This document shows positions 26,259 to 55,974 of a stretch of DNA of 64,000 nucleotides, one piece after another. Below the pieces are notes generated by a model, which saw only the letters and a program-made list of their open reading frames with translations, was not told where the DNA came from and did no database searches. Positions within the stretch are counted from its first letter, which is position 1, and every line of letters starts with the position of its first letter. Source of the DNA: Myroides phaeus (GTDB lineage: Bacteria; Bacteroidota; Bacteroidia; Flavobacteriales; Flavobacteriaceae); assembly GCF_900099675.1 (NCBI RefSeq), contig NZ_FNDQ01000004.1, forward strand, positions 62,001 to 126,000, read 5' to 3'. The position numbers were made by a program, and so were the translations under genes.

Positions 26259-26259
26259 A

Positions 26260-27501: not shown

Positions 27502-28847
27502 TACAATCTACAATCTACACCTTCAGTTAAAGCTCCTTTTACATCATAAACCACAGACACCTCTTTTTTCAAAGGTTCTAAGTCTAATGCTACTAATTCA
27601 TTATGAGATACACCTAAAACAATAGCATCATAACGTTTATTAGCAGTTGGGTAACGGTGATCATCTGATTGATCTACTTTTGGTGTAACTTCTTCTAATG
27701 TAGTATGGCTCACTACACCATATTCGTGCATAACCTCTGCTGGGTTAGCCCACGGGTCATAAGTTGTTACTTTTACGCCATAATCTTCCAATGCAGCAAT
27801 TACATCTACAATCTTCGTATTACGAACGTCTGGACAGTTTTCCTTAAATGTTACTCCTAACATTAATACTTCTGCTTTGCTAACATTGATTCCTTTTTTA
27901 ATCATTGTTTTTACAACTTGAGAAGCTACATACTCTCCCATTGAATCGTTTAAACGACGTCCTGCTAAGATGATTTCTGGGTGGTACCCTTTTTCCATCG
28001 CTTTTTGAGCTAAGTAATATGGGTCAACTCCAATACAGTGTCCTCCTACTAATCCTGGTTTGAATGGTAAGAAGTTCCACTTCGTTCCTGCTGCTTCTAA
28101 TACAGCGTGTGTATCTATATCTAATAGATTAAATATTTTTGCTAATTCGTTTACAAAAGCAATATTGATATCACGTTGCGAGTTCTCAATTACTTTTGCC
28201 GCTTCTGCTACCTTAATTGTTGGTGCTAAATGCGTTCCTGCTGTAATAACAGCTTTGTAAATATCATTTACTACTACCCCAATCTCTGGTGTAGAACCTG
28301 ATGTTACTTTTAATATTTTTTCTACCGTATGTTGCTTATCTCCAGGGTTGATACGCTCTGGCGAGTATCCTCCATAAAAATCTTCATTGAATTTCAATCC
28401 TGAAACTCTTTCTAATACAGGCACACACTCTTCTTCTGTTACACCAGGATATACAGTTGATTCGTAAATTACGATATCTCCTTTTTTTAACACTTTACCT
28501 ACTGTTTCAGACGCTTTGTATAAAGGTGTTAAGTCAGGGCGATTGTGTTTATCTACTGGCGTAGGTACTGTTACAATATATACGTTACAATCTGCAATAT
28601 CTCCTAAGTCATAACTACAAAATAAACCATTAGTAACTTCTCCAATTGTTGGATTACTTTCTACTAAAGCAGCTTTTAAAATATCATCAGCTACTTCTAA
28701 CGTACTGTCTTTTCCTTCTCTTAATTCAGCAATACGCCCTTTGTTGATGTCAAATCCTACTGTAGGAAATTTTGTACCAAATAATCTCGCTAATGGTAAT
28801 CCTACATATCCTAATCCTATTACAGCTATTTTATGTTGTGTGCTCAT
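27501..28847 (-). CDS. Nucleotide-sugar 6-dehydrogenase (TviB/WbpO-like)
   Basis: 448 residues, UDP-glucose/GDP-mannose dehydrogenase family. N-terminal NAD site [14 protein letters not shown] (8-20), the [11 protein letters not shown] segment, the [23 protein letters not shown] helix, and catalytic Cys271 in [12 protein letters not shown]. It is nearest in pattern to TviB/WbpO, which oxidise UDP-GlcNAc or UDP-GalNAc to the uronic acid. Beside a TviC/WbpP-like epimerase, the pair should make UDP-GalNAc-uronate. The gene is less AT-rich than the downstream glycosyltransferases. Confidence 0.9.
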
Positions 28848-28905
28848 ACGGCTATTGTATATTTTGTTATTCTATTTTTATTATTTTCTTAATTGTACAC
28901 TTTCC

Positions 28906-29880
28906 TTAAAGCATTTCTTTATGACTCCAATACCACTTTACAGCTTCTCTTAATCCTTCTTTAATTACGTGCGTTGGCTCATATCCTAATAAAGTTCTTG
29001 CTTTATCTACAGAAGCTAATGAGTGAGGAATATCTCCTACTCTATTTGGTCCGTGTTTAATCTCTACGTTTGCAATTTCTGCATCGTAATCTATTAAAAA
29101 CTCTTTTAAATAACCTACTAATTGGTTTAAGGTAGTTCTATCTCCTACTGCTGTGTTATACACAGTATTTACAGCTTCTGGATTTGTAGTAAGCATTGCA
29201 CGTTCATTCATCTGAATTACGTTATCAATGTAAGTGAAGTCACGAGAATAATCCCCTGTTCCGTTGATTGTTGGGCTTTCGTGTTGTATAAATTGCTTTA
29301 CAAACAATGGAATAACTGCCGCATAAGCGCCTCTTGTATTTTGACGACGTCCGAATACGTTGAAGTAACGCAATCCTATGATTTCCATTCCATAGGTTTT
29401 AGCAAAAACATCTGCATATAACTCGTTTACATACTTTGTAACAGCATAAGGAGAAAGTGGTTTTCCAATTACATCCTCTACTTTTGGTAAAGCGGCAGAA
29501 TCTCCATAAGTTGAAGAACTTGCTGCATATACAAAACGCTTAATCTTAGCGTCTCTTGCTGCTACTAACATATTTAAAAACCCTGATACATTCACATCAT
29601 TACTTGTGATTGGATCATTTACAGAGCGTGGTACTGAACCTAATGCTGCTTGGTGCAACACATAGTCCATTCCTTCTACTGCTTTGCGACAAGTTTCTAA
29701 ATCACGAATATCTCCTTCAAGCAGTTCATAATTTTCATTGCTCATAAAAGATTCGATATTGTGTTTGTATCCTGTAGCGAAGTTGTCTAAACAACGTACA
29801 AAATATCCTTTATTCAAAAAGTACTCCGTTAAATTGGAACCTATGAATCCAGCTCCACCTGTGATTAAAATCTTAGTCAT
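28906..29880 (-). CDS. UDP-N-acetylglucosamine(-uronate) 4-epimerase (TviC/WbpP-like)
   Basis: 324 residues, extended SDR. GGAGFIGSN (8-16), the SSSTYGDSAALPK segment, Tyr145-x3-Lys149, GLRYFNVFGRRQ and YIDNV. The HQAALGSVPRSVNDP stretch is typical of WbpP/TviC, which act on N-acetylated substrates. First gene of the polysaccharide operon, with a perfect -7 box about 96 bases upstream. With the dehydrogenase it provides the uronic acid precursor. Confidence 0.9.
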   Translation of the reverse strand: MTKILITGGAGFIGSNLTEYFLNKGYFVRCLDNFATGYKHNIESFMSNENYELLEGDIRDLETCRKAVEGMDYVLHQAALGSVPRSVNDPITSNDVNVSGFLNMLVAARDAKIKRFVYAASSSTYGDSAALPKVEDVIGKPLSPYAVTKYVNELYADVFAKTYGMEIIGLRYFNVFGRRQNTRGAYAAVIPLFVKQFIQHESPTINGTGDYSRDFTYIDNVIQMNERAMLTTNPEAVNTVYNTAVGDRTTLNQLVGYLKEFLIDYDAEIANVEIKHGPNRVGDIPHSLASVDKARTLLGYEPTHVIKEGLREAVKWYWSHKEML

Positions 29881-29975
29881 TTTCTTTTTTTTATATAACG
29901 TATTTCCGTGATAAATAGTCTAACAAATGCTGTTAAATTGCCAATTATAGGCATCGTTCACATCTTGTCAAGCTA

Positions 29976-29983
29976 CAAATGTA
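29976..29983 (-). promoter_or_regulatory. Promoter -7 box of the polysaccharide operon
   Basis: TACATTTG on the minus strand matches TAnnTTTG exactly and is preceded by AAAGTTTTTAAAAAGTG. Transcription would begin about 90 bases before the epimerase start. A similar upstream AAAGTTTTAAAAAGT stretch precedes the -7 box at 31071. Confidence 0.6.
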
Positions 29984-30182
29984 CACTTTTTAAAAACTTT
30001 TTCTCAATTAAAAACACCCTTTTTCAGTGAAGTAGTACTTTTCTTGAGGGAGTATATTTAAGACATGAATTCCTTGAAATGACACATCATTCAATACCTT
30101 TTAACAGGTTTAAAATGTTTATTTTTTGTTTTTAAGCTTATTAAAGTGTTTTAATGTATTTTTTAAGATAAATATTAAGTGA

Positions 30183-30296
30183 AACGTGAAAACGGGAACC
30201 GAGAACCGATGACCGAAAACCGATGACCGAAAACCGAAAACCGATATGCGTGATACGTGATACGTAATGCGTGATACGTAATGCAGGAACGGGAAA
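30183..30296 (-). repeat. CGGTT/CGTGATACG word repeat
   Basis: On the minus strand it reads as CGGTTTTCGGTCATCGGTT words followed by GCATTACGTATCACG words, like the blocks near galE. Two overlapping open frames here are repeat artefacts. Confidence 0.7.
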
Positions 30297-30332
30297 CAAA
30301 AAAGAAGGTTCACCACATAAGGTGAACCTTCT
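30297..30332 (-). terminator. Terminator of the DUF6266-like gene
   Basis: AGAAGGTTCACC/GGTGAACCTTCT, a perfect 12-base stem, followed on the minus strand by six T; 34 bases past the stop. Confidence 0.9.
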
Positions 30333-30365
30333 CAATTAAACAATCAAACTACTATGGGCTATTGA

Positions 30366-30992
30366 CTACACAATACCTACGTACATACTTGTACTACACT
30401 GATCGCCTTTTGTAACAACAAGCCATACTTCATTTTCATTTGCTTTCCACTCCTCTGCTAAAACAACTGTCATATTACCCTCATCGCGACTTGCAGAGAT
30501 CTGCTCTGGTAAAAACATCTTGTGAACTTTGTTGTAAACAATAGCGGTAACTCTGTCGTCTCCTTTGCTTAGGTTATTGCTTACGCCGCTTGTCCACTCA
30601 ATGGTAAGATTACGGTTTTCTAATTCGTAGTTGCTTACACGAACATTGTCTAATACTCCTTTTGTAATTACTACCTTAGAATAGTTGATCTCAAATTCTC
30701 CGCTTTGTGATTCTTCAATCGTTTCTAACAAGTGATACGACATCGCTAAGTTGGTTCTCGATTTAACGCCTTGGTATTGTCCAAAATACTTGCTTGTTAG
30801 GGCAAATAACGGGCTCAAAAAGTTGGCTACTAATTTGAACTTGGTACGCTGAACTAATTGTTTGGCACTTGGTGCTTTTCTGCTTTTTCGAGGTACTGAT
30901 CTCAAAATGTTTTTACCTCTCCAGTTTGCTCCTACAACTGTTCCTACTTTTCCTCTTACAGGTCCTAAAATTCCTTTTTCTGATTCTGCCAT
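30366..30992 (-). CDS. DUF6266 family protein
   Basis: 208 residues. The N-terminus MAESEKGILGPVRGKVGTVVGANWRGKNILRSVPRKSRKAPSAKQ has the conserved glycine/arginine-rich pattern of the DUF6266 family of Bacteroidota, followed by a helical spacer and two beta-rich halves. No signal peptide. Function unknown; members are often found in accessory regions, and the DUF5675 and small regulator genes nearby suggest the same here. A perfect -7 box (31071-31078) and a strong terminator frame it as a single-gene unit. Confidence 0.75.
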   Translation of the reverse strand: MAESEKGILGPVRGKVGTVVGANWRGKNILRSVPRKSRKAPSAKQLVQRTKFKLVANFLSPLFALTSKYFGQYQGVKSRTNLAMSYHLLETIEESQSGEFEINYSKVVITKGVLDNVRVSNYELENRNLTIEWTSGVSNNLSKGDDRVTAIVYNKVHKMFLPEQISASRDEGNMTVVLAEEWKANENEVWLVVTKGDQCSTSMYVGIV

Positions 30993-31358
30993 GATAATGG
31001 TTTTTTTAAAAATTAATAAATAATAATTGCGTCCTTATCTAGTAGCTACTCTTTGATTCTGAACTCATTGCAAACCTACGGCGACTTTTTAAAACTTTTT
31101 TATCGCCCTTCCGCGTTTGTCCTTTTTCTTCCGTTCTTTTCCCTTTTTTTCCGTTCTTTTCCTTTTTTTTCCGTTCTCGTCTCGAACTTTATATTGCATT
31201 GCTTTTTGTAAGGCGTACAAATTGTGTTAAACGTAACTGATAGGTAACATTCTTCGCTAAAATTCAAGATTTAATCGGGAAGCCTGCCCCTTTTCCGAAC
31301 GACTTGCGAACAAGTCTAAATTCGTTCTCGACTAAAACCACTTTTAATCTCCTTTTTG
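30993..31358. other. Intergenic region with promoter and polypyrimidine tract
   Basis: Contains the DUF6266 promoter and, at about 31107-31180, a plus-strand polypyrimidine tract in which TTCCGTTCTTTTCC-like units occur three times. No gene is seen. Confidence 0.5.
31071..31078 (-). promoter_or_regulatory. Promoter -7 box of the DUF6266-like gene
   Basis: TAGGTTTG on the minus strand matches TAnnTTTG exactly, preceded by AAAGTTTTAAAAAGTCGCCG. About 79 bases before the start codon. Confidence 0.55.
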
Positions 31359-31562
31359 TTACCTCAATCGATCTAATACTTCTGACTCGTCTAAATTCAT
31401 ATAGGCACAAAATTCAACATAGGTGATGATGGCTTTTTGGGGCTTGCCATAAAACTCGCGAATGTCTCTTAATATGCGTAAAGAGGTTTTGTAACTACGC
31501 CCTGTTATTAGGGATACATCGTTTGCAAATACACATAATCTCTCTGTTGGATTTTTTTTCAT
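31359..31562 (-). CDS. Small hypothetical protein of accessory regions
   Basis: 67 residues: MKKNPTERLCVFANDVSLITGRSYKTSLRILRDIRE...VEFCAYMNLDESEVLDRLR. It looks like two short helical parts, a possible helix-turn-helix (VSLITGRSYKTSLRILRDI) and a second helix pair. Similar short proteins recur in flavobacterial genomes without assigned function. A DNA-binding or regulatory role is a guess from the helix pattern. Divergent from the DUF5675 gene. Confidence 0.55.
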   Translation of the reverse strand: MKKNPTERLCVFANDVSLITGRSYKTSLRILRDIREFYGKPQKAIITYVEFCAYMNLDESEVLDRLR

Positions 31563-31809: not shown

Positions 31810-32253
31810 ATGAAAATAAATATTCGCTTGTACCGCGTTTACTTAAACAAGGCTACGCACGGACTTTTGCAAATTAATGGAAGGTCTATTTGCCTGACTA
31901 TTGAACTGCCTTGGGCGGCTAACCAAAGGTCTATCTCTTGTATTCCAGAGGGTAGATATATACTTAAAAATCGCTTTAGCCCACGGTTTAAAGAGCATAT
32001 TGAGGTGCTGAATGTGCCCGACCGATCGTTTATTTTGTTTCACCCTGCTAATAATGCGATGCGCGACTTAAGGGGGTGTATTGCTCCGGTGAGTGAGATT
32101 GCAAATGAGGGGTGGGGAGTGAATTCCAGAATTGCAATGAGTAAATTATTGAATAAGCTGAAGGCGAATTTGCCTTCCGGAAATGTGACCCTTACCGTGC
32201 TTGAAGCTACGGATGAAAAAATTGTAAAAATTATTAAAAAAGGAAAATTATGA
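31810..32253 (+). CDS. DUF5675 family protein
   Basis: 147 residues. Pattern: TIELPWAANQRSISCIPEGRY (residues ~29-50), FILFHPANNAMRDLRGCIAPVSEI with a conserved His and Cys arranged as in L,D-transpeptidase-like folds (H...C), and GNVTLTVLEA. DUF5675 proteins occur in prophages and accessory islands of Bacteroidota, often beside small membrane proteins. A role in cell-wall processing is an inference from the His/Cys arrangement. Its stop overlaps the next start by four bases (ATGA), so the three genes 31810-32661 form one operon. A 7/8 -7 box (CACTTTTG) lies at 31737-31744. Confidence 0.75.
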   Translation: MKINIRLYRVYLNKATHGLLQINGRSICLTIELPWAANQRSISCIPEGRYILKNRFSPRFKEHIEVLNVPDRSFILFHPANNAMRDLRGCIAPVSEIANEGWGVNSRIAMSKLLNKLKANLPSGNVTLTVLEATDEKIVKIIKKGKL

Positions 32254-32691: not shown

Positions 32692-33490
32692 TTGACATAT
32701 CGTTTTTTTTTGTTATCGGTTATCGGTTTCCCATTATCGGTTCCCGGTTTTCGGTTATCGGTTTTCGGTTTCCCATTATCGTTTCCCATTATCGGTTTCC
32801 CATTATCGGTTTCCCATTATCGGTTTCCGTTGTCGGTTATCGGTTATCGGTTACCCATTATCGGTTTCCCGTTGTCGGTTATCGGTTATCGGTTTCCCAT
32901 TATCGGTTCCCGGTTTTCGGTTATCGGTTTTCGGTTTCCCATTATCGGTTTTCCATTATCGGTTTCCGTTGTCGGTTATCGGTTTTCCATTATCGGTTTC
33001 CGTTGTCGGTTATCGGTTATCCGTTGTCGGTTCCCCGTTGTCGGTTATCGGTTTCCATTATCGGTTACCCGTTTTCGGTTTTCGGTTATCGGTTACCCGT
33101 TTTCGGTTTTCGGTTATCGGTTTCCCATTATCGGTTTCCGTTGTCGGTTATCGGTTATCCGTTGTCGGTTCCCCATTATCGGTTCCCCATTATCGGTTTC
33201 CATTATCGGTTACCCGTTTTCGGTTTTCGGTTATCGGTTTCCCATTATCGGTTCCCCATTATCGGTTATCGGTTCCCGGTTTCCCATTATCGGTTTTCCA
33301 TTATCGGTTTCCGTTGTCGGTTATCGGTTTCCCATTATCGGTTTCCGTTGTCGGTTATCGGTTATCGGTTCCCCATTATCGGTTTCCATTATCGGTTACC
33401 CGTTTTCGGTTTTCGGTTATCGGTTTCCCATTATCGGTTTCCGTTGTCGGTTATCGGTTATCCGTTGTCGGTTCCCCGTTGTCGATATTT
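32692..33490 (+). repeat. CGGTT word array, about 800 bases
   Basis: A dense array built from a small set of words: TATCGGTT, TTTTCGGTT, TTGTCGGTT, CCCATTATCGGTT, CCGTTGTCGGTT, ACCCGTTTTCGGTT. The plus strand lacks TAA, TAG and TGA over long stretches, so all three plus frames are open at once (up to 371, 275 and 197 codons); these are artefacts. The words occur in mixed order, so this is not a simple head-to-tail tandem repeat. Confidence 0.9.
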
Positions 33491-33503
33491 TATTGGATTG
33501 CCC
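33479..33503 (+). repeat. Left copy of a 25-bp imperfect direct repeat flanking the RteC-like cassette
   Basis: TTGTCGATATTTTA followed by TTGGATTGCCC; the right copy at 37105-37129 has CCAGATTGCCC. 22 of 25 positions agree. They lie outside the inverted R2 repeats. Confidence 0.6.
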
Positions 33504-33560
33504 ACCACCACCAATGTAGGGGCGAATTATTATTCGCCCGCACGGCATACGACACAACGT
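33500..33560 (+). repeat. Hairpin repeat module B, copy 1
   Basis: CACCACCAATGTA, then the GGGCGAAT/ATTCGCCC hairpin with a TATT loop, then GCACGGCATACGACACAA. The same module is repeated at 57-58 kb. Confidence 0.8.
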
Positions 33561-33639
33561 AAATCACGTATATCGGTTATCGGTTCCCGGTTTCCCATTA
33601 GCGGTTATCGGTTTCCGGTTTCCATTAATATACAAATAC

Positions 33640-34030
33640 ATCACAATTTAACCGATGCGTCAAACTGACGGAACATCATTAATGTACAAAAACGTCAAAA
33701 ATCAGACGGAGCGTCTGGGCGGCCTTATTTGTTTAGCGAGCGTCAAACAGCATGCAGACACCGCAAAATGAAAAATGGCGTAACGCAGTGGAGCTCGTAT
33801 TTTTTCATTTAGGTGTCAAATGCAAGTTTGACCGCTAAAGAAATAGAGCCTTGATTTTTTTGTTTCGTTTTTTTATCAAGAAAAAAATGAAAAGAGAAGA
33901 AAACAGAAAAGCGCAGCTTTTCAAAAGAAAGGTTGAAAGCACAGCTTTCAAAAAAGAAAAGAAAAGAAAAGAAATAGAAAAACGTAGTTTTTCAAAAAGA
34001 AAGAAAGATTGAAAGCGCAGCTTTCAAAAA
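33640..34030 (-). repeat. R2 repeat, left inverted arm of the RteC-like cassette
   Basis: Reverse-complement copy of the sequence at 36300-36640. The core (about 33705-33900) matches 36388-36580 with very few differences, including TTAGCGGTCAAACTTGCATT and GACGCTCGCTAAACAAATAA. The inner part is a purine-rich stretch with GAAAGC..GCTTTC hairpin words. Confidence 0.85.
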
Positions 34031-34033
34031 ACA

Positions 34034-34813
34034 TTAAAAATCATTAACCTTTACCGTTAACTGTAACCTATCAAACAAAGTATCCTTCACCTCCTTGCGA
34101 TTTTTAAAATTATAAACCAGCGAGCTAAGTTGTTTTTGAATTTTCATATTAAACATAACATCAAAAGCAGACACAACCTCACTCTTTGTGCAATTTCCCT
34201 TATTAATAAGCTTTAATTCAACCAAACCATTTATTAAAAGTGCGAGATCAGTATTAGAACCCGTCCACTTTAATGTAGTATTTAAATCATTAAAATTCTT
34301 AAACTTAAAAATAGTAGCATTAATATAAGGAATAATCACTTCATTAACTTCAAAATTCGCAATGATATAAGAGGGATTTGTAGGATCTAAACTTGCATAA
34401 GTACTAGGATCGTGATTAACATAATAGATCTCATCTCTGGTTGTTAATTCACAAACATAATACCCGTGTAAGTCCATATTATCACACTTAACTTGGTGAC
34501 AAGTGCTGATTGCTTTCTTGTAAAATCCTATCGACTCTTCTAAAATAACAGGCTTATAATAAGTCATTTCGATGTATTTAACGAGTAAACAATAATGTTT
34601 TATCCATTTTACGAGCACTTTTTTGTAAAATTTGATTTCATTTTGAACAGAAGAGAAACTTTTAGTCTGAATTTGGAAATCTAAGTCTGCAAACTGCTTT
34701 TGATAACTTATTTTTAAAAGATTTATCTCTTTTTCATCAAGTTCAAAAAACATCTGACTTTCGTCTATTAACTTTTTAAATCGCTTCTTTGCTTTTCTTA
34801 CATAAGCATCCAT
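34034..34813 (-). CDS. RteC-like regulator protein
   Basis: 259 residues from the ATG at 34813 (MDAYVRKAKKRF); the longer frame adds an unlikely Tyr/Ile-rich leader. The C-terminal part carries the RteC signature LKWTGSNTDLALLINGL (181-197), followed by INKGNCTKSEVVSAFDVMFNMKI and an NRKEVKDTLFDRL end. In CTnDOT, RteC is a DNA-binding regulator that switches on excision genes; chromosomal homologues exist with unknown targets. Here it sits inside a pair of inverted repeats, divergent from a winged-helix/DnaC-like gene pair, which suggests regulation within a mobile or formerly mobile unit. Confidence 0.8.
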   Translation of the reverse strand: MDAYVRKAKKRFKKLIDESQMFFELDEKEINLLKISYQKQFADLDFQIQTKSFSSVQNEIKFYKKVLVKWIKHYCLLVKYIEMTYYKPVILEESIGFYKKAISTCHQVKCDNMDLHGYYVCELTTRDEIYYVNHDPSTYASLDPTNPSYIIANFEVNEVIIPYINATIFKFKNFNDLNTTLKWTGSNTDLALLINGLVELKLINKGNCTKSEVVSAFDVMFNMKIQKQLSSLVYNFKNRKEVKDTLFDRLQLTVKVNDF

Positions 34814-34972
34814 ACTTCTTGTTATATATAAGATTTTAATGCAATAATATAAAAAAACATCTTTAATACAAAACAATTATTTCACTTGTTATTAGATAAT
34901 TTAATAAACTAAAAATACATATTTAACTTTTAATACAATCTTACGTCAATGTTTATTCTAAAAACCTATTGC

Positions 34973-34980
34973 TACTTTTG
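34973..34980 (+). promoter_or_regulatory. Promoter -7 box of the winged-helix/DnaC-like gene pair
   Basis: TACTTTTG matches TAnnTTTG exactly, 25 bases before the ATG at 35005; GTTTA 19 bases upstream is a weak -33 candidate. Confidence 0.6.
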
Positions 34981-35004
34981 AAGCAGAAATTAAATCTATA
35001 AATA

Positions 35005-35607
35005 ATGAATTACATCAAACATTTGTCCCACTGGTTTGAGATAATGCGTATCAGTGAGGAGGTTAAACCTACGCATATTGCTATTTATATAGCGTTGTTC
35101 CGAATGTGGAACCAGAGTCGATTTGCACCGGTTTTTATCGTTAATCGGATGGAGTTAATGAACGTGAGTAAGATCGGCAATAAATCGGTTTATAGTGATT
35201 GTATGAAGGATCTACATCGCTGGGGATGGATAAAGTATGCGCCGAGCAACTCAAAGTATAGCAATAGTACGGTAACTATGGTCAATTTAACGGATGGTAA
35301 ATTCTTGAAGTCGGATCAGAAAACGGAGCTTAAAAAGTGGTTGTCGCCTTCGGTTTTGTCTGCTGATACACTAGGTGAAACTAATGCTGATGTGACTGTT
35401 AATACCGAGACAAGTAGTGAGACGAGTACAGAGACCAGTAGCCAGACAAGTACAGAGACCAGTAATAATACGAGTAGTGAGACGAGTGTGGGAACGACTA
35501 TGCAACAAGGTGTGGGACACAATTATAAAACATATAAACAGCAAACGGCTAAAGGAGAAACAAATCAATTAAATAATTTAAAAAGTAAATATGATGAGCA
35601 ACTTTAA
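35005..35607 (+). CDS. Winged-helix DNA-binding (replication-initiator-like) protein
   Basis: 200 residues. The N-terminal 95 residues look like a winged helix: KPTHIAIYIALFRMWNQSRF, MNVSKIGNKSVYSDCMKDLHRWGWIKYAPSNSKYSNSTVTMVNL, the layout of DnaD/RepA-N-type domains in phage and transposon replication proteins. Residues about 131-164 are a low-complexity Ser/Thr/Glu repeat encoded by short tandem DNA repeats (GAGACGAGTA-like, 35395-35500). The C-terminus is polar. It overlaps the DnaC-like gene by 17 bases, so the two are translationally coupled, as in primosome modules. Confidence 0.7.
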   Translation: MNYIKHLSHWFEIMRISEEVKPTHIAIYIALFRMWNQSRFAPVFIVNRMELMNVSKIGNKSVYSDCMKDLHRWGWIKYAPSNSKYSNSTVTMVNLTDGKFLKSDQKTELKKWLSPSVLSADTLGETNADVTVNTETSSETSTETSSQTSTETSNNTSSETSVGTTMQQGVGHNYKTYKQQTAKGETNQLNNLKSKYDEQL

Positions 35608-36244
35608 TTTAAAATTTACGGATACGTTTACAATCGTGGATAATAAACGCCTTTTTTCTATCAATAAATGTTGGTTGTATCTGGAGCAACAGGGTAAAGC
35701 GATTTATGGTTCGCATTTTGTTATTAACAATCATCATAAAAAGGCGTTGTATAAATTGCTGATTTATGCGATTGAGGATCAGGTGGAAATGGATAGATTG
35801 GGGCTGAATCCGAATAAGGGTATTTTATTGATGGGCGAAAATTTCACTGGTAAAACGGCAATGATGCGTTTGACACAGGACTTTTACCGCAAAAAGAAAA
35901 GATACGACATCAAGTCGTGTCGCTTGTTATCACACAACTTCTTGCTTAACAACGGGTATGAGTCTTTAGTTCCCCTTTTGTCGCCAACAGCTAAGGTGCT
36001 GGTGCTTGATAATATGGGAACAGAAAACCCGGTGAAGCATTTCGGGAATACCTGCAATGTGGTGATGGATATTGTTGAGCATTTTTACGAACAACGGTTT
36101 GATTTGTCGTACCCTCGTTTGCACATCACAACAACGCTGTCACCTACGGAGATTAGCAAGAAATACGGCGACGGGTTTAGAGCAATGGTCAAAGAAATGT
36201 TTAATGTGGTGGTGGTTGCCAGCAACGCCGCTAATGCTGTTTGA
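35591..36244 (+). CDS. DnaC/IstB-like AAA+ ATPase
   Basis: 217 residues. Walker A at 82-90 (GENFTGKTA), Walker B LVLDNMGTE (138-146; the usual DD is DN here), and HITTTLSPTEISKKYGDGFRAMVKEMFNVV with a sensor/arginine segment. These are features of helicase loaders of the DnaC/IstB group. With the preceding winged-helix protein it makes a two-gene replication-like module. No replicative helicase, integrase or transposase is seen in the cassette, so it would rely on host or other factors. Confidence 0.8.
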   Translation: MMSNFNLKFTDTFTIVDNKRLFSINKCWLYLEQQGKAIYGSHFVINNHHKKALYKLLIYAIEDQVEMDRLGLNPNKGILLMGENFTGKTAMMRLTQDFYRKKKRYDIKSCRLLSHNFLLNNGYESLVPLLSPTAKVLVLDNMGTENPVKHFGNTCNVVMDIVEHFYEQRFDLSYPRLHITTTLSPTEISKKYGDGFRAMVKEMFNVVVVASNAANAV

Positions 36245-36299
36245 TTAATGATGTTTACTGCTTTTTCTTTTCACGCATCACGTTTTGTTCTTCTCCTTT

Positions 36300-36640
36300 C
36301 ATTTTTGAAAGCTGCGTTTTTCTATTTCTTCTCTTTTCTTTTTGAAAGCTTCGCTTTCAACCTTTACGAAAAATTACATTTTTCTAATGTTCTCTTTTTC
36401 ATTTTTTTCTTGATAAAAAAACGAAACAAAAAAATCAAGGCTCTATTTCTTTAGCGGTCAAACTTGCATTTGACACCTAAATGAAAAAATACGAGCTCCA
36501 CTGCGTTACGCCATTTTTCATTTTGCGGTGTCTGCACGCTGTTTGACGCTCGCTAAACAAATAAGGCCGCCCAGACGCATCGTCAGATAAGTGACGTTTT
36601 TGTACATTAATGATATTTCCTCAATTAGACGCATCGGTTA
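36300..36640 (+). repeat. R2 repeat, right inverted arm of the RteC-like cassette
   Basis: Inverted counterpart of 33640-34030. Includes the purine/pyrimidine-rich GAAAGC words, the TCAAGGCTCTATTTCTTTAG core and the GACGCTCGCTAAACAAATAA end. The open frame at 36248-36454 lies in this repeat and is not a gene. Confidence 0.85.
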
Positions 36641-37005
36641 AATTGTGTTGTCTTCTTTATAATGGTATTTCATCAATTAGACGCATCGGTTAAATTGTGT
36701 TGTCTTCTTTATAATGGTATTTCCTCAATTAGACTCATAGTCAGATAAGTGACGTTTTTGTAGATTAATGATATTTCATCAATTAGACGCATCGGTTAAA
36801 TTGTGTTGTCTTCTTTATAATGGTATTTCATCAATTAGACACATCGGTTAAATTGTGTTGTCTTCTTTACAATGATATTTCATCAATTAGACGCATCGGT
36901 TAAATTGTGTTGTCTTCTTTACAATGATATTTCATCAATTAGACGCATCGGTTAAATTGTGTTGTCTTCTTTATAATGGTATTTCATCAATTTAGACGCA
37001 TCGTT
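36612..37005 (+). repeat. Tandem repeat, about 52-bp unit, six near-identical plus variant units
   Basis: Units begin ATTTCATCAATTAGACGCAT and continue CGGTTAAATTGTGTTGTCTT with a CTTTATAATGGT end. Six are nearly identical. A variant unit with GTCAGATAAGTGACGTTTTT occurs at about 36720-36775, matching the end of the R2 arm. A single related unit lies outside the left arm near 33620-33680. Confidence 0.85.
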
Positions 37006-37017
37006 TTTCACGTTTTA

Positions 37018-37129
37018 CTTTTCACGCATCACGTTTTACGTTTTACGTTTTACGTATATCGGTTCCCCGTTTTCGGTTTCCCGTTTTCAATTATCGGTTC
37101 CCAATTGTCGATATTTTACCAGATTGCCC
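37018..37129 (+). repeat. CGGTT/ACGTTTTACG words and right direct repeat
   Basis: Short CACGTTTTAC and CGGTTTCCCG words run up to the right copy of the 25-bp direct repeat (37105-37129), whose left copy is at 33479-33503. Confidence 0.65.
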
Positions 37130-37807: not shown

Positions 37808-38158
37808 TTAGTTAAAAAAATACATTATACTAATCAATATCATAGATTAAATAAATAATATTTCATATATTAAATATTTTTAAGCTTATTTATAAAACAT
37901 ACGCCTTTACAATGGACTTTCGAATTTATTCTAAAACTAATGTAAATTACCTCTAAGTGGCTAAAAATTCCTAAGTTTTACAATACTTTGTTATGTCTTA
38001 AAAGTGTTGTTTTAAAGGGGGGATCATGTAAATTAGTACGACTATTCTGGCACAAAAGGGAAAAGAACAGCTAAAGAAAGGCAAAATTGACATAAATCTT
38101 CTTCTTATTCAACGTGTAGTTATAACAAAAATTTAAACTAATAAAACAGAATACTGCG

Positions 38159-38166
38159 TATATTTG
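38159..38166 (+). promoter_or_regulatory. Promoter -7 box of the thioesterase gene
   Basis: TATATTTG matches TAnnTTTG exactly; it implies a leader of about 125 bases before the ATG at 38299. Confidence 0.5.
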
Positions 38167-38298
38167 CAGCTTACTCTACAAAGAGTGTTTCTTGCGTTAT
38201 TGCGCCTTTTTTGTCTTTTGTTTCCACGGTTATGCCATTGGGTGTATGAAACTAAGAGAATCTTGGATTGCTGCGTACAGATTTTTTAACTTGTAAAA

Positions 38299-38739
38299 AT
38301 GAATCATTATACTATGGAAGGTCAATTAACTAGCAGAGAACTGCGTATTCAAAAGAAAATCAAGGATTCTGAAACTCACGTATTTAAAGCGGTTTTCCCT
38401 GGGCAAACTAATCACCACAATACGATGTTTGGTGGAGCGGTTATGTATATCATGGATGAAATTGCTTTTATGACGGCTACGCGTTTTTGTCGTAAACCTA
38501 TTGTTACGGTTTCTAGTGATAAGGTGGATTTTAATCACCCTATTCCAGCTGGTACATTGGTTGAACTGATTGGTACGGTTACGCGTGTGGGTAGAACGAG
38601 TTTGGATGTTCGCGTTGATGTGTTCGTAGAAAGTATGTATAGAGAAGGTCGCGAAAAAGCTATTACTGGTTCGTTTACGCTTGTAGCGATTAATGAAAGC
38701 AAAAGACCTGTTCCTGTTTTAGACGAGGTGGAGGAATAA
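38299..38739 (+). CDS. Acyl-CoA thioesterase (hotdog fold, YciA-like)
   Basis: 146 residues, single hotdog domain. The N-H-H-N-T-M-FGG...MDEIAFMTATR segment (about 38-62) holds the catalytic aspartate on the long central helix. SSDKVDFNHPIPAGTLVELIGTVTRVGRTSLDVRVDVF matches the CoA-binding strands of the YciA/BFIT acyl-CoA hydrolases. It hydrolyses acyl-CoA to free fatty acid and CoA in the cytoplasm. An alternative start at the second Met (38314) is possible. Followed by a strong terminator; a single-gene unit. Confidence 0.9.
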   Translation: MNHYTMEGQLTSRELRIQKKIKDSETHVFKAVFPGQTNHHNTMFGGAVMYIMDEIAFMTATRFCRKPIVTVSSDKVDFNHPIPAGTLVELIGTVTRVGRTSLDVRVDVFVESMYREGREKAITGSFTLVAINESKRPVPVLDEVEE

Positions 38740-38773
38740 TCTTATGGCTTGATGCTAAAAATTGAATATATAT

Positions 38774-38807
38774 TAGGGACTGTCAAAGATGATGGTCCTT
38801 TTTTTTT
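38774..38807 (+). terminator. Thioesterase terminator, same sequence family as those of galE and nagB
   Basis: Ten-base arms like the terminators at 10962 and 12636, here with an AAGA loop and nine T. It is oriented with its gene in all three cases. Confidence 0.85.
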
Positions 38808-38809
38808 GA

Positions 38810-39150
38810 AAGTGTTGCTTTCAATGTTTCTTTTTTGAAAAACTACGTTTTTCTAATTTCTTTTTTTATGTTTTTACAGCGAGGATTTTATTTTTAACAT
38901 CTTTGAACTGTGAATCTTTGATGTCAAGGCTCTATTTCTTTAACGGTCAAACTTGCATTTGACACCTAAATGAAAAAACACGCTCCACTGCGTTACGTCT
39001 TTTTCATTTTACAGTATCTTCAAACATTTAACGCTTGCTAAATAAATAAGGCCACCACAGACGTATCGGTTGATTTATGGAACTTTCTTTACAATGATGT
39101 TTTATCTTTTGACAATCCGGTTGGTATTGATATTTCGGTTTTCAGTTTTC
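38810..39150 (+). repeat. R2 repeat, copy 3
   Basis: Contains TCAAGGCTCTATTTCTTTAA, CGGTCAAACTTGCATTTGAC and an AACGCTTGCTAAATAAATAA end, more diverged than the cassette arms. Its leading part (TTTTTACAGCGAGGATTTTA) is shared with the copy at 55280-55700. Confidence 0.8.
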
Positions 39151-39159
39151 AAAAAAAAC

Positions 39160-40032
39160 TTACTCCTCATTCATCAACATTTCTACAAAAACTCGTACTG
39201 CCCTCTTCTGATAACTTCCTTTCATCTGAATAATTACGGCTTCACGTTGCATATTTGTATCAGTAATCGGAATTGCTGTTAAATTCTCTTCTCCGCGTAC
39301 TGTGGCGTGGGTTAGTATGGTTTGAAATGCACCTACTTTTACCAGGTCAATCACCGTACTGGTGTGGTTTACTTCTACTGCTATGTGGGGGGTAATCTTG
39401 TATTTCTCAAACTGGCGGTCGATGAAGTTTCGGGTGCTGAATCCTTTGACTGGCATAGCGAGGTCCAGCTTCTCTATTTCCTTTAACTTGATGCCGGGTA
39501 ACTGGGCTAAGGGTGAGTTACTTGCTACAATGAGTGCCATTTCTGAGGTAATTAATGGTTCATAATGAAGGTTTTCTGCGTGTTCTCCATCAAAAAACGT
39601 CAGGGCAAAGTCGATTTGTTGGTTCAACAGATAGTCGATCAATTCATTGGTGGTTCCAAAGGTTACCTCAATCTTTACGCCTGGATGGGCTTGGGCAAAC
39701 ATTTTTAAAGGGGTTAGCACCAACGATTTTAGTCCCCACGTTAATCCAATGCTCAATACCCCTGTTTTGAGCTCGGTTAAATCTTCTAATAATGTCATCC
39801 CATCTTGCGCGGCTTTGATACTGCGTTCTGCGTAAGTGGCAAACATCTCTCCTGCCTCGGTTAGTACAATTCGCTTGCCTATACGGTTAAATAAGGGTTG
39901 CCCCAACTCCTCCTCCAACTGCTTGATTTGCTGTGATAGTGTACTCTGAGTGATGTATAATCGCTTTGCCGCCTCTGTAAAGTTCAGCAACTCTTTGGCT
40001 TTGAGAAAATATCTTAGTTGTCGTAACTCCAT
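39160..40032 (-). CDS. LysR-family transcriptional regulator
   Basis: 290 residues. N-terminal winged helix-turn-helix (LRYFLKAKELLNFTEAAKRLYITQSTLSQQIKQLEEELGQPLFNR, residues 4-48) and a two-lobed effector-binding domain. It is divergent from the MFS transporter gene with 90 bases between them, the usual layout for a regulator and its target, so it probably controls that transporter. The effector is unknown. Confidence 0.93.
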   Translation of the reverse strand: MELRQLRYFLKAKELLNFTEAAKRLYITQSTLSQQIKQLEEELGQPLFNRIGKRIVLTEAGEMFATYAERSIKAAQDGMTLLEDLTELKTGVLSIGLTWGLKSLVLTPLKMFAQAHPGVKIEVTFGTTNELIDYLLNQQIDFALTFFDGEHAENLHYEPLITSEMALIVASNSPLAQLPGIKLKEIEKLDLAMPVKGFSTRNFIDRQFEKYKITPHIAVEVNHTSTVIDLVKVGAFQTILTHATVRGEENLTAIPITDTNMQREAVIIQMKGSYQKRAVRVFVEMLMNEE

Positions 40033-40122
40033 TTGTTAATCGGTATTATCGATTGATATGATAGAAAAATTCCGTTTTACTAATATATAACTTACGCTTA
40101 ACTTTACAAAAAAGAATTTTAG
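40033..40122. promoter_or_regulatory. Divergent LysR/MFS control region with candidate LysR operator
   Basis: Ninety bases contain ATCGGTATTATCGAT and the overlapping TATCGATTGATA, both partial palindromes close to the T-N11-A LysR form. A near -7 box for the transporter, TAACTTTA, lies close to the plus-strand start. Confidence 0.4.
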
Positions 40123-41334
40123 ATGGCGACGACTACGTATACTAACGAGGTGTCAACGGACAGGGCTGTAAAGGGTTCGATCCGTTATAAAAGGATTAAA
40201 TGGTGTATTTTTATGGTTGGGGTGTCGGTTTTTGCACAATTGTACAACTACCAACCACTGTTGTCGGATATCACGCACTTTTTTAGTGTTACCCCGGCAC
40301 AGAGTAGTTACCTCGTTTCGGCTTCGACAATGGGAATGGCGTTTGGTTTACTGCTGTTTGCGTTTATTGCCGATAGTTATCCTCGCAAAGAGGTGATGTT
40401 GTTTTCACTGGTTACTTCTACGGTGCTTACGCTGGGTTCGGCGTGGGTGACAGATTTCTCGCTATTGGTAAACATCAACTTTATAAAGGGTATTTGTATT
40501 TCTGGGGTATCGGCTGTTACGCTGGCTTACCTTGCGGAAGAGATTGATCCTAAGAATATTGGTACGGCAATTAGCTTTTATTTGGCGGGAAATACGTTTG
40601 GTGGAATGTTTGGGCGAATTGTAGCGGCGCTAATCAGTGGTTGGTTTGGCTGGCAAGTGGCGGTATTTAGTATTGGACTAATTGCGATTATTATTGCTCT
40701 TGCGTTTTATGTTTTCTTTCCGGAATCAGCTTTCTTTAGTCCACAAAAGTTGAATTTACAGCATAAATTGGGGCAAATAAAGAGTATTTTTCGCAATGTG
40801 AAATTACTGGCAATGTACGTGGTGGCTATTTGCTTGATGGGTTCGTTTGTGAGTGTGTACAATTTTCTTGGTTTTAAGTTGGAAGCACCGCCTTATAACC
40901 TGCCGCATTACTTGATTGCAATGATCTTTTTGATGTATGCTTTTGGAATTTTCGGCAATATGGTGGCGGGGACGTTGTCTGATAAATATTCGCCTAAAAA
41001 GATCTTGTTGTCGGCATTGGCTTTGATGTTATTGGGAACAATTGCGATGTTTTTAGATAACCTGGTGGTGATTTTACTGGGTTTAACGTTTTTCACTATC
41101 TCTTTTTTCAGTGGACACACCATTGCGAGTCGCGTTGTAACTACTTTAGGACAGGAAGCGAAGAGTTCGGCAACGGCTTTTTACTGGTTCTTTTACTATA
41201 TCGGATCGAGTGTAATTGGTAGTTCTACTGGGGTTTTCGTGAATAATGGTCATTGGAATGGCTTCTTCTTAACTTTGATGGCGTTGTCGGTGATTGCGCT
41301 TGTAACTACGTGGTATGCTACACGAAAGAGGTAA
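40123..41334 (+). CDS. MFS transporter (YnfM-like)
   Basis: 403 residues with 12 predicted TM segments after a polar N-terminal stretch of about 25 residues. The motif-A-like loop reads FAFIADSYPRKEVMLFS (about 85-101), and VAGTLSDKYSPKKILL (about 283-298) repeats it in the second half. Similar to the YnfM/YgaY drug- and sugar-efflux MFS proteins that are paired with LysR regulators. The substrate is unknown; the divergent LysR gene suggests an inducible efflux pump. Confidence 0.88.
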   Translation: MATTTYTNEVSTDRAVKGSIRYKRIKWCIFMVGVSVFAQLYNYQPLLSDITHFFSVTPAQSSYLVSASTMGMAFGLLLFAFIADSYPRKEVMLFSLVTSTVLTLGSAWVTDFSLLVNINFIKGICISGVSAVTLAYLAEEIDPKNIGTAISFYLAGNTFGGMFGRIVAALISGWFGWQVAVFSIGLIAIIIALAFYVFFPESAFFSPQKLNLQHKLGQIKSIFRNVKLLAMYVVAICLMGSFVSVYNFLGFKLEAPPYNLPHYLIAMIFLMYAFGIFGNMVAGTLSDKYSPKKILLSALALMLLGTIAMFLDNLVVILLGLTFFTISFFSGHTIASRVVTTLGQEAKSSATAFYWFFYYIGSSVIGSSTGVFVNNGHWNGFFLTLMALSVIALVTTWYATRKR

Positions 41335-41433
41335 TGTTTTGACGCTTTGGTTGGATATTGATGTGTTTGTTTATCGGTATGTTTCATCGGTACAGACGCG
41401 ATACTCCACGTCTTTGCAATGCACGATTTTGAA

Positions 41434-41467
41434 GGCAAAAAAAAGAGATGTTTTGCAACATCTCTTA
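41434..41467 (-). terminator. Terminator of the first TM2 gene
   Basis: AAGAGATGTT/AACATCTCTT stem followed on the minus strand by eight T, six bases from the stop. Confidence 0.85.
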
Positions 41468-41472
41468 TATGA

Positions 41473-41739
41473 TTAAAACCAGCTTTTTTTATTAGCTTGA
41501 TAAGTTTGGTAAAATTCTTCATCAGATTTAGTTAGGTAAATGATTCCTTCAATAAAGCCAATGATTCCTAATACACCGCAACTACATACACTAATTATTA
41601 ATTGAATAATTCCTTCTTTAGTATATCCTAAATAGAATTTATGAATTCCCAAATAACCGAATATTATTCCTAAAATTCCAGCAAGTACCTTCTTATTTTC
41701 TTGTTGAGGCACATTGCTTCTTTGTGTGTTTTGTTCCAT
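41473..41739 (-). CDS. TM2 domain protein (short)
   Basis: 88 residues. A polar N-terminus of about 16 residues, then the TM2 domain: KKVLAGILGIIFGYLGIHKFYLGYTKEGIIQLIISVCSCGVLGIIGFIEGIIYL, two TM segments joined by the HKFYLGY turn. Function unknown for bacterial TM2 proteins. Closely similar to the longer TM2 gene just upstream, so the two arose by duplication. A perfect -7 box is found upstream. Confidence 0.9.
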   Translation of the reverse strand: MEQNTQRSNVPQQENKKVLAGILGIIFGYLGIHKFYLGYTKEGIIQLIISVCSCGVLGIIGFIEGIIYLTKSDEEFYQTYQANKKSWF

Positions 41740-41758
41740 AATGTTTTATAGTTTTAAT

Positions 41759-41766
41759 CAAAAATA
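41759..41766 (-). promoter_or_regulatory. Promoter -7 box of the short TM2 gene
   Basis: TATTTTTG on the minus strand matches TAnnTTTG; a TTG lies 22 bases upstream. Confidence 0.55.
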
Positions 41767-41954
41767 ACAAAACATCATTGACTAACAATGTATTACAAAA
41801 CAATTTTTTCTTATCTAAAAATAATACGCGTGATAAATTGTCATTTTTTTAGCGGTACACCTCCTCTTCTTCCCTTGTAAATAAAGGGCTGACATAAAAT
41901 TTCATTGCCTTGAAAAAAAAGTGTGATTTTTATAAAAAAGTTACCTTAAAAAAT

Positions 41955-42389
41955 TTAGAACCATCCCTTTTTATTCACCTGATAGGTGTAATAAAATTCT
42001 TCGTCTGACTTTGTCAAATAAACAATTCCTTCAATAATTCCCAAAATCCCTAAAGTACCACACGAGAAAAGAGTGATTAATATCTGGATGATTCCCTCTG
42101 TTGAATAGCCTAAATAAAACTTGTGAACACCCCATGGACCAAGAAAAATACCTAACAATCCGGCAGCCATCTTCTTATTGTCAATTGGCTTCCCATTATT
42201 CCCGTAACCTTGGTAATTTCCGTATCCACCGTTGTTTTGATTACCTTCATTTTGATAGTTTTGACGGTATCCTGAATTTTGGTAACCTTGCTGTTGGCCA
42301 GTGTTTCCGTAGTTGTTTCCTTGCTCTTGATTCTCTTGAGAATACTGGCTTTTACGATTATTATCGTCTGATGGATTTATTAAATGCAT
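41955..42389 (-). CDS. TM2 domain protein with Asn/Gln/Gly/Tyr-rich N-terminus
   Basis: 144 residues. Residues 1-65 are a low-complexity, prion-like N/Q/G/Y-rich segment (GYRQNYQNEGNQNNGGYGNY). The TM2 domain follows (KKMAAGLLGIFLGPWGVHKFYLGYSTEGIIQILITLFSCGTLGILGIIEGIVYL), then a short cytoplasmic tail almost identical to that of the neighbour (KKGWF versus KKSWF). Function unknown. Confidence 0.88.
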   Translation of the reverse strand: MHLINPSDDNNRKSQYSQENQEQGNNYGNTGQQQGYQNSGYRQNYQNEGNQNNGGYGNYQGYGNNGKPIDNKKMAAGLLGIFLGPWGVHKFYLGYSTEGIIQILITLFSCGTLGILGIIEGIVYLTKSDEEFYYTYQVNKKGWF

Positions 42390-42403
42390 ATGTTCTTTTC
42401 ATA

Positions 42404-42411
42404 CAAATATA
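42404..42411 (-). promoter_or_regulatory. Promoter -7 box of the long TM2 gene
   Basis: TATATTTG on the minus strand matches TAnnTTTG exactly, 15 bases before the start, with TTG about 22 bases upstream. Confidence 0.6.
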
Positions 42412-43130
42412 CAATCTTAACAATTTTATGCAATTTTTTTAAAAAAAAGGAACTTGAGTGAGGTATGAAATGGATTGCGTCTTTGCGGAAGCCGATAGGT
42501 ACAAAGTGATATTTCTTGTAAGTTGGGTTTTCAGAAAAACGTCCTAAAAACGTTCTTTTAAACAAATACACTTCCTATTTACTACATATGTCAATAGTGA
42601 GAAAACAACGTCTTAAAACCCCTTTATTTTGCGTTAAACGTTGTGTTGTCGGCTTACAAAGGAACGTGTTTTCTCGTGTTATATTTAATTCTTATAAACT
42701 CGCTAAGTAACAATGACCAAGTGCTTATTGATTGCTATGTATATAGTGAAATCTGTTTAGGGTACTTTTCCCTTTTTGTGTTTGCTCTGATCAAATTGAG
42801 AGGATTCAAAAACACACGCATGAAGAAAAAAACAGTAAAAACTTCACGGTATCCATAATTGATAAAAAGAAACAATTTGTCCGCAAACTACTAATTTGCC
42901 TTTGGGTACTCTTTGTGAAGACATCACTACAATAATTACTTTGGAAAGTGCGTACAATGCCATTTTAACAAGGCTTAAGGGATATATTTTCTGTTTGTGT
43001 TCTATTTGTATGTTTAAACTATTAAAAGTACTTAAATGGTCTTATTTGGGTTTATTTACTTAGAAGTATAGTACAAATAGCATATTTGTACATAATGTCC
43101 GTATTTTTTCTTTTAAAGGTTGTTTGTTGT
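42412..43130. other. Intergenic region without a supported gene
   Basis: About 700 bases. A 71-codon plus frame at 42643-42858 has no recognisable features and no ribosome site. Nothing else is seen except a fragment (GATTGCGTCTTTGCGGAAGC) resembling module C tails. Confidence 0.5.
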
Positions 43131-43134
43131 ACAA

Positions 43135-43772: not shown

Positions 43773-43773
43773 A

Positions 43774-43803: not shown

Positions 43804-43838
43804 TTTATTTTTTCAAGATTGGTGCGTTACCGCTATGT

Positions 43839-46460: not shown

Positions 46461-46470
46461 GATGTGTTTT

Positions 46471-55215: not shown

Positions 55216-55974
55216 AGCGTAAGTATTTAGACTTCTAATGTAGGTAGTTTGAAGGAGAATATCAAATGAATTGTTTTTTGAAAGCTATGCATTTCTTATT
55301 CATTCTTTTCATTTTTTTGAAAGCTGCGCTTTCACAACTTTTTGAAAAACTTCGTTTTTCTGATGTCTTCTCTTCATTTTTGTACAGCGAGTATTTTATT
55401 TTTAACATCAATGAACTGTGAATCTTCGATGTCTTGATAAAAAAACGAAGCAAAAAAATCAAGGCTCTATTTCTTTAGCGGTCAAATTAGTTTTCAATGC
55501 CTAAATGAAAAGAACTTGCTCCATTTCATTACGCTTCAAACACCTTTTCATTTTGCGGCATCTTCAAACATTTGACGCTCGCTAAACAAATAAGGCCGCC
55601 ACAGACGCATCAGTTAATAAGTGACATTTTTGTACATTAATGATATTTCGTCAATTAGAGGTATCGGTTGAAAAGTGAAGTTAACGTTTACAATGGTAAT
55701 TCGTTATTTAAACGTATCGGTTGGTATTGATATTCTGGTTTTCCGGTTTCCGGTTTTCCGTTTTTTCAATTTCCGTAATGTATATTACGTACCGCGCTCC
55801 GTACGGGCGAACCTGTGTGTTCGCCCCTTGTTGTTTATTTATAAACAAACCTGCATAATACATATACACAAAGACGCATTACGTTTTACGTCTTTCGTTA
55901 TACGGTTCACGCATCACGTCTTTCGGTTCCCCGTTCCCGCATATCGGTTTTCGGTTCCCCGTTCCCGGTAATAC
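55216..55974. repeat. R2 repeat copy 4 followed by CGGTT words and module A
   Basis: R2 copy at about 55280-55700 (TTTTTGTACAGCGAG, TCAAGGCTCTATTTCTTTAG, GACGCTCGCTAAACAAATAA), then CGGTTTTCCGTT words, then a module A copy at about 55776-55883, then further CGGTT words to the toxin-like gene. The open frame at 55675-55971 is a repeat artefact. Confidence 0.85.

What the first reader, a model, noticed from the sequence alone, without database searches (positions are those of the whole stretch)
33479..37129. Repeat-bounded cassette with RteC-like regulator and winged-helix/DnaC-like replication pair
A divergent three-gene set (RteC-like 34034-34813, winged-helix 35005-35607, DnaC/IstB-like 35591-36244) is enclosed by nearly identical inverted repeats of about 190 bp (33705-33900 and 36388-36580), and outside these by a 25-bp imperfect direct repeat (22/25 positions). 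No integrase, transposase or relaxase is present. RteC controls excision of CTnDOT-type elements and DnaC loaders serve replication, so this looks like a regulatory-plus-replication module without its own mobility enzyme: a non-autonomous element, a satellite, or a domesticated remnant. Single R2 copies at 38.8 kb and 55.3 kb suggest solo arms of the same family.
Basis: partly seen in the sequence, partly recalled or inferred. Interest (0 to 1): 0.75.

Follow-up and report, generated by a model that had tools for sequence, protein, structure and literature searches.

The report
Stranded replication-control module from genomic islands
A small gene set in a Flavobacterium chromosome descends from the replication-control core of widespread mobile islands; it has lost the enzyme that moves the island and the catalytic residues of its DNA-helicase loader, yet relatives of it are kept intact, so it may have been put to a new use.

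Summary
The RteC / winged-helix / ATPase trio, the inverted arms and the 25-bp direct repeat are real. The arms do not define the unit. The trio is the right half of a compact module: DUF6266, 67-aa protein, DUF5675, hydrophobic protein, RteC, winged-helix, ATPase. The same order occurs in three other Flavobacterium genomes (one without the 67-aa gene); the two scanned have no arms. In the closest relative found, such arms bracket unrelated genes and the trio is absent.

The trio is homologous to the core of integrase-bearing islands of Flavobacterium and other Bacteroidota: integrase, RteC, HTH_17, winged-helix, DnaC-like ATPase, cargo, DUF5675 block. In island winged-helix genes a DNA-conserved AT-rich element lies in the linker (49 of 99 genes; 0.6 expected), suggesting an in-gene origin as in lambda O.

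The compact ATPases form one clade. All 5 seen (one a broken gene) have Asn for the catalytic Walker-B acid (0 of 125 others) and have lost two arginines; Walker A is kept. dN/dS is 0.12-0.21 among three relatives; pairs with the window are saturated or higher.

Best reading: an immobilised replication-control module kept by selection, probably acting in trans. That last step is inferred.

The parts
30366..30992 (-). DUF6266 protein; beside the trio in all 4 compact loci, but also present without the trio in G241, so doubtful member
   Evidence: PF19781 E 1.1e-23; G241 match to window 29968-31323 at 91.6%
31359..31562 (-). 67-aa protein (k16), also at the end of full islands
   Evidence: homology among loci; no ORF for it found in G099
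31810..32253 (+). DUF5675 protein; relatives in Microviridae, uncultured human-gut (cr50_1, cr10_1) and Vibrio phages
   Evidence: PF18925 E 8.3e-30; 133 phage records
32250..32492 (+). 80-aa protein, hydrophobic by eye (k9)
   Evidence: conserved in compact loci and full islands
34034..34813 (-). RteC-like regulator
   Evidence: PF09357 E 1.3e-16
35005..35607 (+). winged-helix initiator-like protein, without the C-terminal domain of most island versions
35403..35487 (+). 12/24-bp repeats inside the winged-helix gene (iteron-like)
   Evidence: TRF; near-perfect GATACAAGTAGT arrays at the same place in G382 and G081
35512..35542 (+). GTGGGACAC plus AT-rich stretch, possible unwinding element; similar stretch in 5 of 5 compact genes, judged by eye
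   Evidence: the island counterpart was tested statistically
35591..36244 (+). DnaC/DnaI-like AAA+ ATPase with Asn at the catalytic Walker-B position and Met at the likely arginine-finger position (that mapping is recalled)
33635..33893 (+). inverted repeat arm 1 (hairpin repeat), 3' of rteC
36396..36654 (-). inverted repeat arm 2, 3' of the ATPase gene
33906..34027 (-). three terminator-like hairpins 3' of rteC
   Evidence: consensus matches only
33479..33503 (+). 25-bp direct repeat, left copy
37105..37129 (+). 25-bp direct repeat, right copy
36608..37003 (.). 52-bp tandem array continuing from the outer end of arm 2
38924..39101 (-). solo arm between the thioesterase and LysR genes (names by eye)
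55432..55681 (-). solo arm

Best explanation
A compact, integrase-less derivative of the regulation-and-replication core of a family of Bacteroidota integrative islands. In full islands RteC and an HTH_17 protein would govern excision, and the winged-helix protein (initiator, lambda-O-like, with an AT-rich element inside its own gene) plus the ATPase (DnaC-like helicase loader, in the place of lambda P) would start replication of the excised circle. In the compact lineage the integrase and HTH_17 genes are gone, the initiator keeps only its DNA-binding domain and in-gene repeats, and the loader keeps ATP binding but has lost the catalytic acid and two arginines. Shown: homology, gene order, residue changes, purifying selection in relatives. 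Inferred: it no longer drives replication by itself; RteC controls a divergently transcribed winged-helix/ATPase operon whose products bind the repeats and perhaps the host helicase without completing loading, so they act in trans as a brake on related elements or as a regulator. The arms are dispersed hairpin repeats, here at transcription-unit ends, not element ends.
For: Same order in 4 genomes; compact ATPases form one clade, 100/98 support; Walker-B D to N in 5 of 5 compact and 0 of 125 others, R199 to M in 5 of 5 and 0 of 125; dN/dS 0.12-0.21 for ATPase, winged-helix and RteC where measurable among G081, G099 and G382; islands with integrase, HTH_17 and cargo; in-gene element in 49 of 99 island genes against 0.57 expected from synonymous shuffles; DnaC fold; arms around unrelated genes in G241 and hairpin structure.
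Against: For the window itself selection is not shown: ATPase synonymous sites are saturated, and measurable pairs give higher dN/dS at near-saturated dS (winged-helix 0.30 with G099, RteC 0.31-0.46). Its RteC is only 17-19% identical to the other compact RteCs. Short winged-helix proteins also occur in loci that keep HTH_17, RteC and a normal Walker B, so a missing C-terminal domain need not mean loss of replication. Lambda P is, from recall, not an ATPase, so loss of hydrolysis need not stop loading. Patchy distribution (4 of 398 congeners, plus a broken copy in G146; absent from sister G241) suggests it still moves or is often lost. G081 has an IS66-like insertion (identified by eye) in its winged-helix gene and G146 a broken ATPase.
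Confidence: 0.5

Rival explanations
1. A repeat-bounded non-autonomous transposon or satellite: the 190-260 bp arms are terminal inverted repeats, the 25-bp repeat an old target duplication, moved in trans.
For: Arms 95% complementary; direct repeat with exactly two copies in the genome, placed outside the arms.
Against: Conserved unit extends outside the left arm; no long arms in G081 or G099; arms bracket unrelated genes in G241; solo arms; direct repeat absent from G241.
Confidence: 0.12
2. A decaying island remnant with no function.
For: Integrase, HTH_17 and cargo gone; IS66-like insertion in G081; broken ATPase in G146; patchy; window pairs give higher dN/dS where measurable, 0.30-0.46.
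Against: dN/dS 0.12-0.21 across the trio genes in relatives; the same positions changed in five genomes, with N and M identical in all; intact reading frames in G000, G099, G382.
Confidence: 0.15
3. A working replicon core whose loader has become lambda-P-like (hydrolysis not needed), excised and integrated by recombinases of other elements.
For: In-gene repeats and AT-rich stretch are kept and in two genomes expanded; Walker A kept; patchy distribution; G081 has two copies of the winged-helix and DUF5675 genes.
Against: No integrase or HTH_17 relative among the window ORFs; C-terminal domain of the initiator missing; no other related ATPase copy in G000, G081 or G099.
Confidence: 0.22

Closest known systems
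CTnDOT regulation and excision module (RteC, IntDOT, Xis-type HTH)
   Same: RteC-family regulator; full island relatives have a tyrosine integrase with Arm-DNA-bind_5 and an HTH_17 protein. That RteC controls CTnDOT excision and transfer genes: passages of PMC1976400.
   Different: Window has neither integrase nor HTH_17; rteA/rteB were not searched for; island relatives pair RteC with an initiator and loader.
Lambda O/P replication module with origin inside gene O (recalled)
   Same: Initiator gene with repeats or AT-rich DNA in its linker, followed by an overlapping helicase-loader gene.
   Different: No sequence relation tested; loader is of the DnaC/DnaI AAA+ type; window initiator lacks the C-terminal domain and window loader lacks catalytic residues.
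DnaC/DnaI helicase loaders
   Same: Fold (3ec2 E 2.7e-7, 5he8, 6qem, 2w58), Walker A.
   Different: Walker-B acid and two arginines replaced in the whole compact clade.
Plasmid RepA-type initiators (PDB 4pql, 4pt7, 5kbj; the family name is recalled)
   Same: Winged-helix domain, best structural matches, Z 9.3-9.8 over 104-106 residues.
   Different: 11-12% identity, weak Foldseek E (0.012 at best), tied with chains of yeast transcription pre-initiation complexes (Z 9.2).
Riemerella anatipestifer 10K genomic island (PMC6764341; passages seen)
   Same: Tyrosine-integrase island in a relative within the Flavobacteriales, shown to excise and integrate.
   Different: tRNA-Arg site with 53-bp att repeats; the main text has no occurrence of RteC, helix-turn-helix or ATPase; genes not compared.

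Membership tests
RteC family | match to PF09357 above the curated cut-off | tested here: met
   61.4 bits against 25.3
CTnDOT-type conjugative transposon | IntDOT-type tyrosine integrase | tested here: not met
   no window ORF of 60 aa or more related to the islands' integrase
CTnDOT-type conjugative transposon | Xis-type HTH_17 excision gene | tested here: not met
   no window ORF of 60 aa or more related to the islands' HTH_17 protein
CTnDOT-type conjugative transposon | mob/tra transfer genes | not tested
   no dedicated profile search made
Bacteroidota RteC/winged-helix/ATPase island family (described here) | winged-helix and ATPase genes adjacent, RteC near | tested here: met
Bacteroidota RteC/winged-helix/ATPase island family (described here) | own integrase plus HTH_17 and cargo | tested here: not met
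   some of the related loci also lack a recognised integrase in the stretch held (34 of 84 have one)
DnaC/DnaI helicase loader | AAA+ fold closest to DnaC/DnaI, Walker A | tested here: met
DnaC/DnaI helicase loader | catalytic Walker-B acid and arginine finger | tested here: not met
   N at position 141 and M at 199 in window numbering; mapping of 199 to the finger is recalled
DnaC/DnaI helicase loader | binds and loads DnaB | not testable with these tools
   needs biochemistry
RepA_N or lambda-O type initiator | winged-helix DNA-binding domain | tested here: inconclusive
   RepA-type structures first but tied with unrelated winged helices
RepA_N or lambda-O type initiator | repeats inside the initiator gene | tested here: met
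RepA_N or lambda-O type initiator | C-terminal recruitment domain | tested here: not met
   absent in the window protein; a conserved GW motif is in 107 of 110 long relatives; that this region is a recruitment domain is inferred
TIR transposon | terminal inverted repeats | tested here: inconclusive
   arms present but also around unrelated genes in G241
TIR transposon | target-site duplication | tested here: inconclusive
   25-bp repeat, 22 of 25, not adjacent to the arms
TIR transposon | transposase or mobile copies | tested here: inconclusive
   no second copy of the ATPase in the own genome and no other paired full arms; no transposase profile search made

The most novel reading that the evidence does not exclude
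The compact module is a domesticated replication-interference device: a truncated initiator that still binds iteron-type repeats, paired with an ATP-binding but hydrolysis-dead helicase loader, under RteC control. It would poison or titrate replication of incoming islands or phages that use the intact version, a chromosomal incompatibility system built from the invader's own core.
Probability: 0.25. Interest if true: 0.8.

Novelty: new variant of a known kind. Interest (0 to 1): 0.5.

Why it matters
It ties RteC, known from one conjugative transposon system, to a widespread initiator/loader pair in Bacteroidota islands that can carry defence genes and, by eye, metal-efflux genes. It predicts an origin inside the initiator gene that can be tested directly, and points to a lineage where the same pair was frozen with residues predicted to be catalytically dead, yet kept by selection in relatives.

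Tried and rejected
Arms as element ends: rejected, see rivals. tRNA-linked integration: no tRNA in the window and one in 16 island stretches, tRNA-Ser in L073. Functional RNA: one match far below its gathering score at arm 1, a microRNA family, taken as chance. Window proteins as known defence: no PADLOC match for 7 proteins. DUF6266 in phages: none. ATPase in plasmids and phages: 3 and 2 weak records. Viral contigs: 4 loci, one with the order integrase, RteC, HTH_17, winged-helix, ATPase (L193) and one phage-like by eye with DUF5675 and a loader (L194). First genome-contig scan with the window protein alone confirmed nothing; the alignment query gave 579, of which 80 were kept. An exact empty site was not found: in G241 the region is rearranged. 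Sequence search of solved structures with the winged-helix profile: none.

Literature, listings only: DUF6266 0 papers, RteC with Flavobacterium 3, two of RteC/integrase/Flavobacteriaceae 109 with 15 listed, DUF5675 2, Vibrio phages, island/helicase-loader query 6, RteC+excision+CTnDOT 8. No title or abstract start in these listings names this module. Passages only were seen of PMC6764341, PMC1976400 and PMC6316836.
Full report
What is there. The window is contig C20, 62001-126000, of a 2.97-Mb genome. Genome G030, of the same genus, has a contig of the same length as a named Flavobacterium taihuense contig, so the genus is Flavobacterium. The trio, arms and direct repeat are as described. The 25-bp repeat has exactly two copies in the own genome and none in the closest relative found, G241.

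The arms. Full or nearly full arms in the own genome lie only in this stretch: two around the trio and solo copies at 38.9 and 55.4 kb; fragments lie here and one on another contig. The paired arms fold into a hairpin (z -4.1 and -2.8); pieces of the solo copies fold less well (-1.2 and -1.9). Each paired arm lies 3' of an outward-pointing transcription unit; three terminator-like hairpins lie between rteC and arm 1. Part of the arm is repeated in congeners (matches in 16 of 60 genomes, own included). In G241 two full arms sit in inverted orientation, 5.8 kb apart, around ordinary genes. No arm pair flanks the trio in G081 or G099, nor the related loci of G018, G011 and G146. So the arms are a dispersed repeat, not the border of the trio.

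The island family. The ATPase was found in 105 of 299 congeners, own included, the N-terminal part of the winged-helix protein in 163 (some of these matches are weak and may be other families) and DUF5675 in 109. Of 84 loci fetched by the ATPase alignment (80 from named genomes, 4 viral), 80 carry a recognised winged-helix gene, 70 HTH_17, 62 RteC, 34 the integrase and 27 a further protein, c4, within the stretch held. Usual order: integrase, RteC, HTH_17, winged-helix, ATPase, c4, cargo, then a convergent block k9-DUF5675-k12 and k16. The integrase has Arm-DNA-bind_5, Phage_int_SAM_5 and Phage_integrase domains. Eight cargo proteins were sent to PADLOC: five from one island (G217) match AbiEi, AbiEii, LmuA, LmuB and PDC-S73, one from G142 matches weakly, two match nothing. 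Of the 150 DUF5675 places that the listing showed, 67 lie within 40 kb of a listed ATPase; in 22 genomes of 1-3 contigs it is 20 of 32. Both listings were cut, so co-location may be undercounted.

A possible origin inside the winged-helix gene. In 99 distinct island genes of 215 aa or more the linker contains TATAAACAATACAAAC in 49, against a mean of 0.57 (maximum 3) in 100 synonymous codon shuffles; excess codon conservation peaks there (0.54 against a median of 0.13 over 147 windows). A 9-mer of the repeat is weaker: 18 of 109 island genes against 6.5 (maximum 17). I read the AT-rich element as part of an origin by analogy with lambda O (recalled). Twelve-bp periodicity of 0.65 or more is present in 4 of 5 compact genes and in 8 of 121 others.

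The compact lineage. G000, G081, G099 and G382 share DUF6266(-), k16(-), DUF5675(+), k9(+), RteC(-), winged-helix(+), ATPase(+); no k16 ORF was found in G099, and in G081 an IS66-like insertion (by eye) splits the winged-helix gene. G000, G081 and G099 lie beside a polysaccharide locus, judged by eye; G382 lies beside a large Rhs-like gene (by eye) on one side, and the contig ends 1 kb after the ATPase. The four full ATPases form one clade at 100/98 (59 of 114 distinct rows used; the tool warns that long branches meet there). Among 130 ATPases (copies of one locus under two handles not removed), the second Walker-B acid is D in 124 and G in 1 of 125 others, N in all 5 compact ones; R199 is R in 121 of 125, M in all 5; R195 is R in 121 of 125 and lost in all 5; Walker A is kept in the 4 compact proteins that cover it. 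G018, a near neighbour, keeps DD but has both arginines replaced (alignment), has the two blocks side by side and no recognised integrase in its 17-kb stretch: a plausible intermediate. Among G081, G099 and G382 dN/dS is 0.12-0.15 for the ATPase, 0.16 for the winged-helix pair G382-G099, and 0.15-0.21 for RteC where measurable. Pairs with the window are saturated in the ATPase; where measurable they are higher, 0.30 (winged-helix) and 0.31-0.46 (RteC), at dS of 1.7 or more. Window RteC is 17-19% identical to the others.

Structures. ATPase model pLDDT 84.7, pTM 0.84; best PDB match the DnaC helicase loader. Winged-helix model: roughly residues 1-110 confident, the rest mostly under 60; best matches plasmid RepA-type initiators, but weak and tied with other winged helices.

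Local history. G241 (bioB 97% identical) has DUF6266 beside its polysaccharide cluster; it is not among the genomes listed with an ATPase, DUF5675 or winged-helix match, and its two stretches that match the window's flanks hold no trio. Window 38117-52487 maps about 625 kb from where 52752-64000 maps in G241. The module therefore sits at rearrangement breakpoints and was gained in G000 or lost in G241.

Judgement. The descent from island cores, the shared residue losses and selection in relatives are shown. That the module no longer replicates, and that it acts in trans, is inferred; loaders that work without hydrolysis exist (recalled), so the rival of a lambda-P-like working loader stays open. 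G000, G081 and G099 hold no second related ATPase, as an interference device would predict, but three genomes are too few when about a third of congeners have the ATPase at all.

Noticed in passing
window 32712-33484: Array of about 50 copies of a 14-bp (2 x 7) unit GTTATCGGTTTCCC; related 7/14-bp arrays recur at 10.6, 12.4, 30.2, 43.2, 55.9 and 57.7 kb in both orientations.
   Followed up: no
window 16727-29880 against G241 2191859-2206966: Polysaccharide clusters (by eye) with conserved edges and mostly replaced interior between two close genomes: likely serotype switching.
   Followed up: partly
window 55298-58430: About 3.1 kb with two small genes (55975-57056), absent from G241, where the flanks are nearly contiguous.
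   Followed up: no
G081 21-27 kb and 3.750-3.752 Mb (L197, L283, L313): Much of the compact module and upstream genes is duplicated about 38 kb apart across the sequence start; both copies carry IS66-like remains (by eye) at the winged-helix gene. Could be an assembly effect.
   Followed up: partly
L273 and L285 (G197, G284): Very diverged ATPase relatives (28-31%) between k12 and k16 genes: perhaps a second reduced lineage.
   Followed up: no
G241 2175287-2176123 (L304): A lone RteC-like gene, judged by eye, in the matching variable region of the sister genome.
   Followed up: no
window 46380-46939: 35-bp tandem array of at least 12 copies.
   Followed up: no
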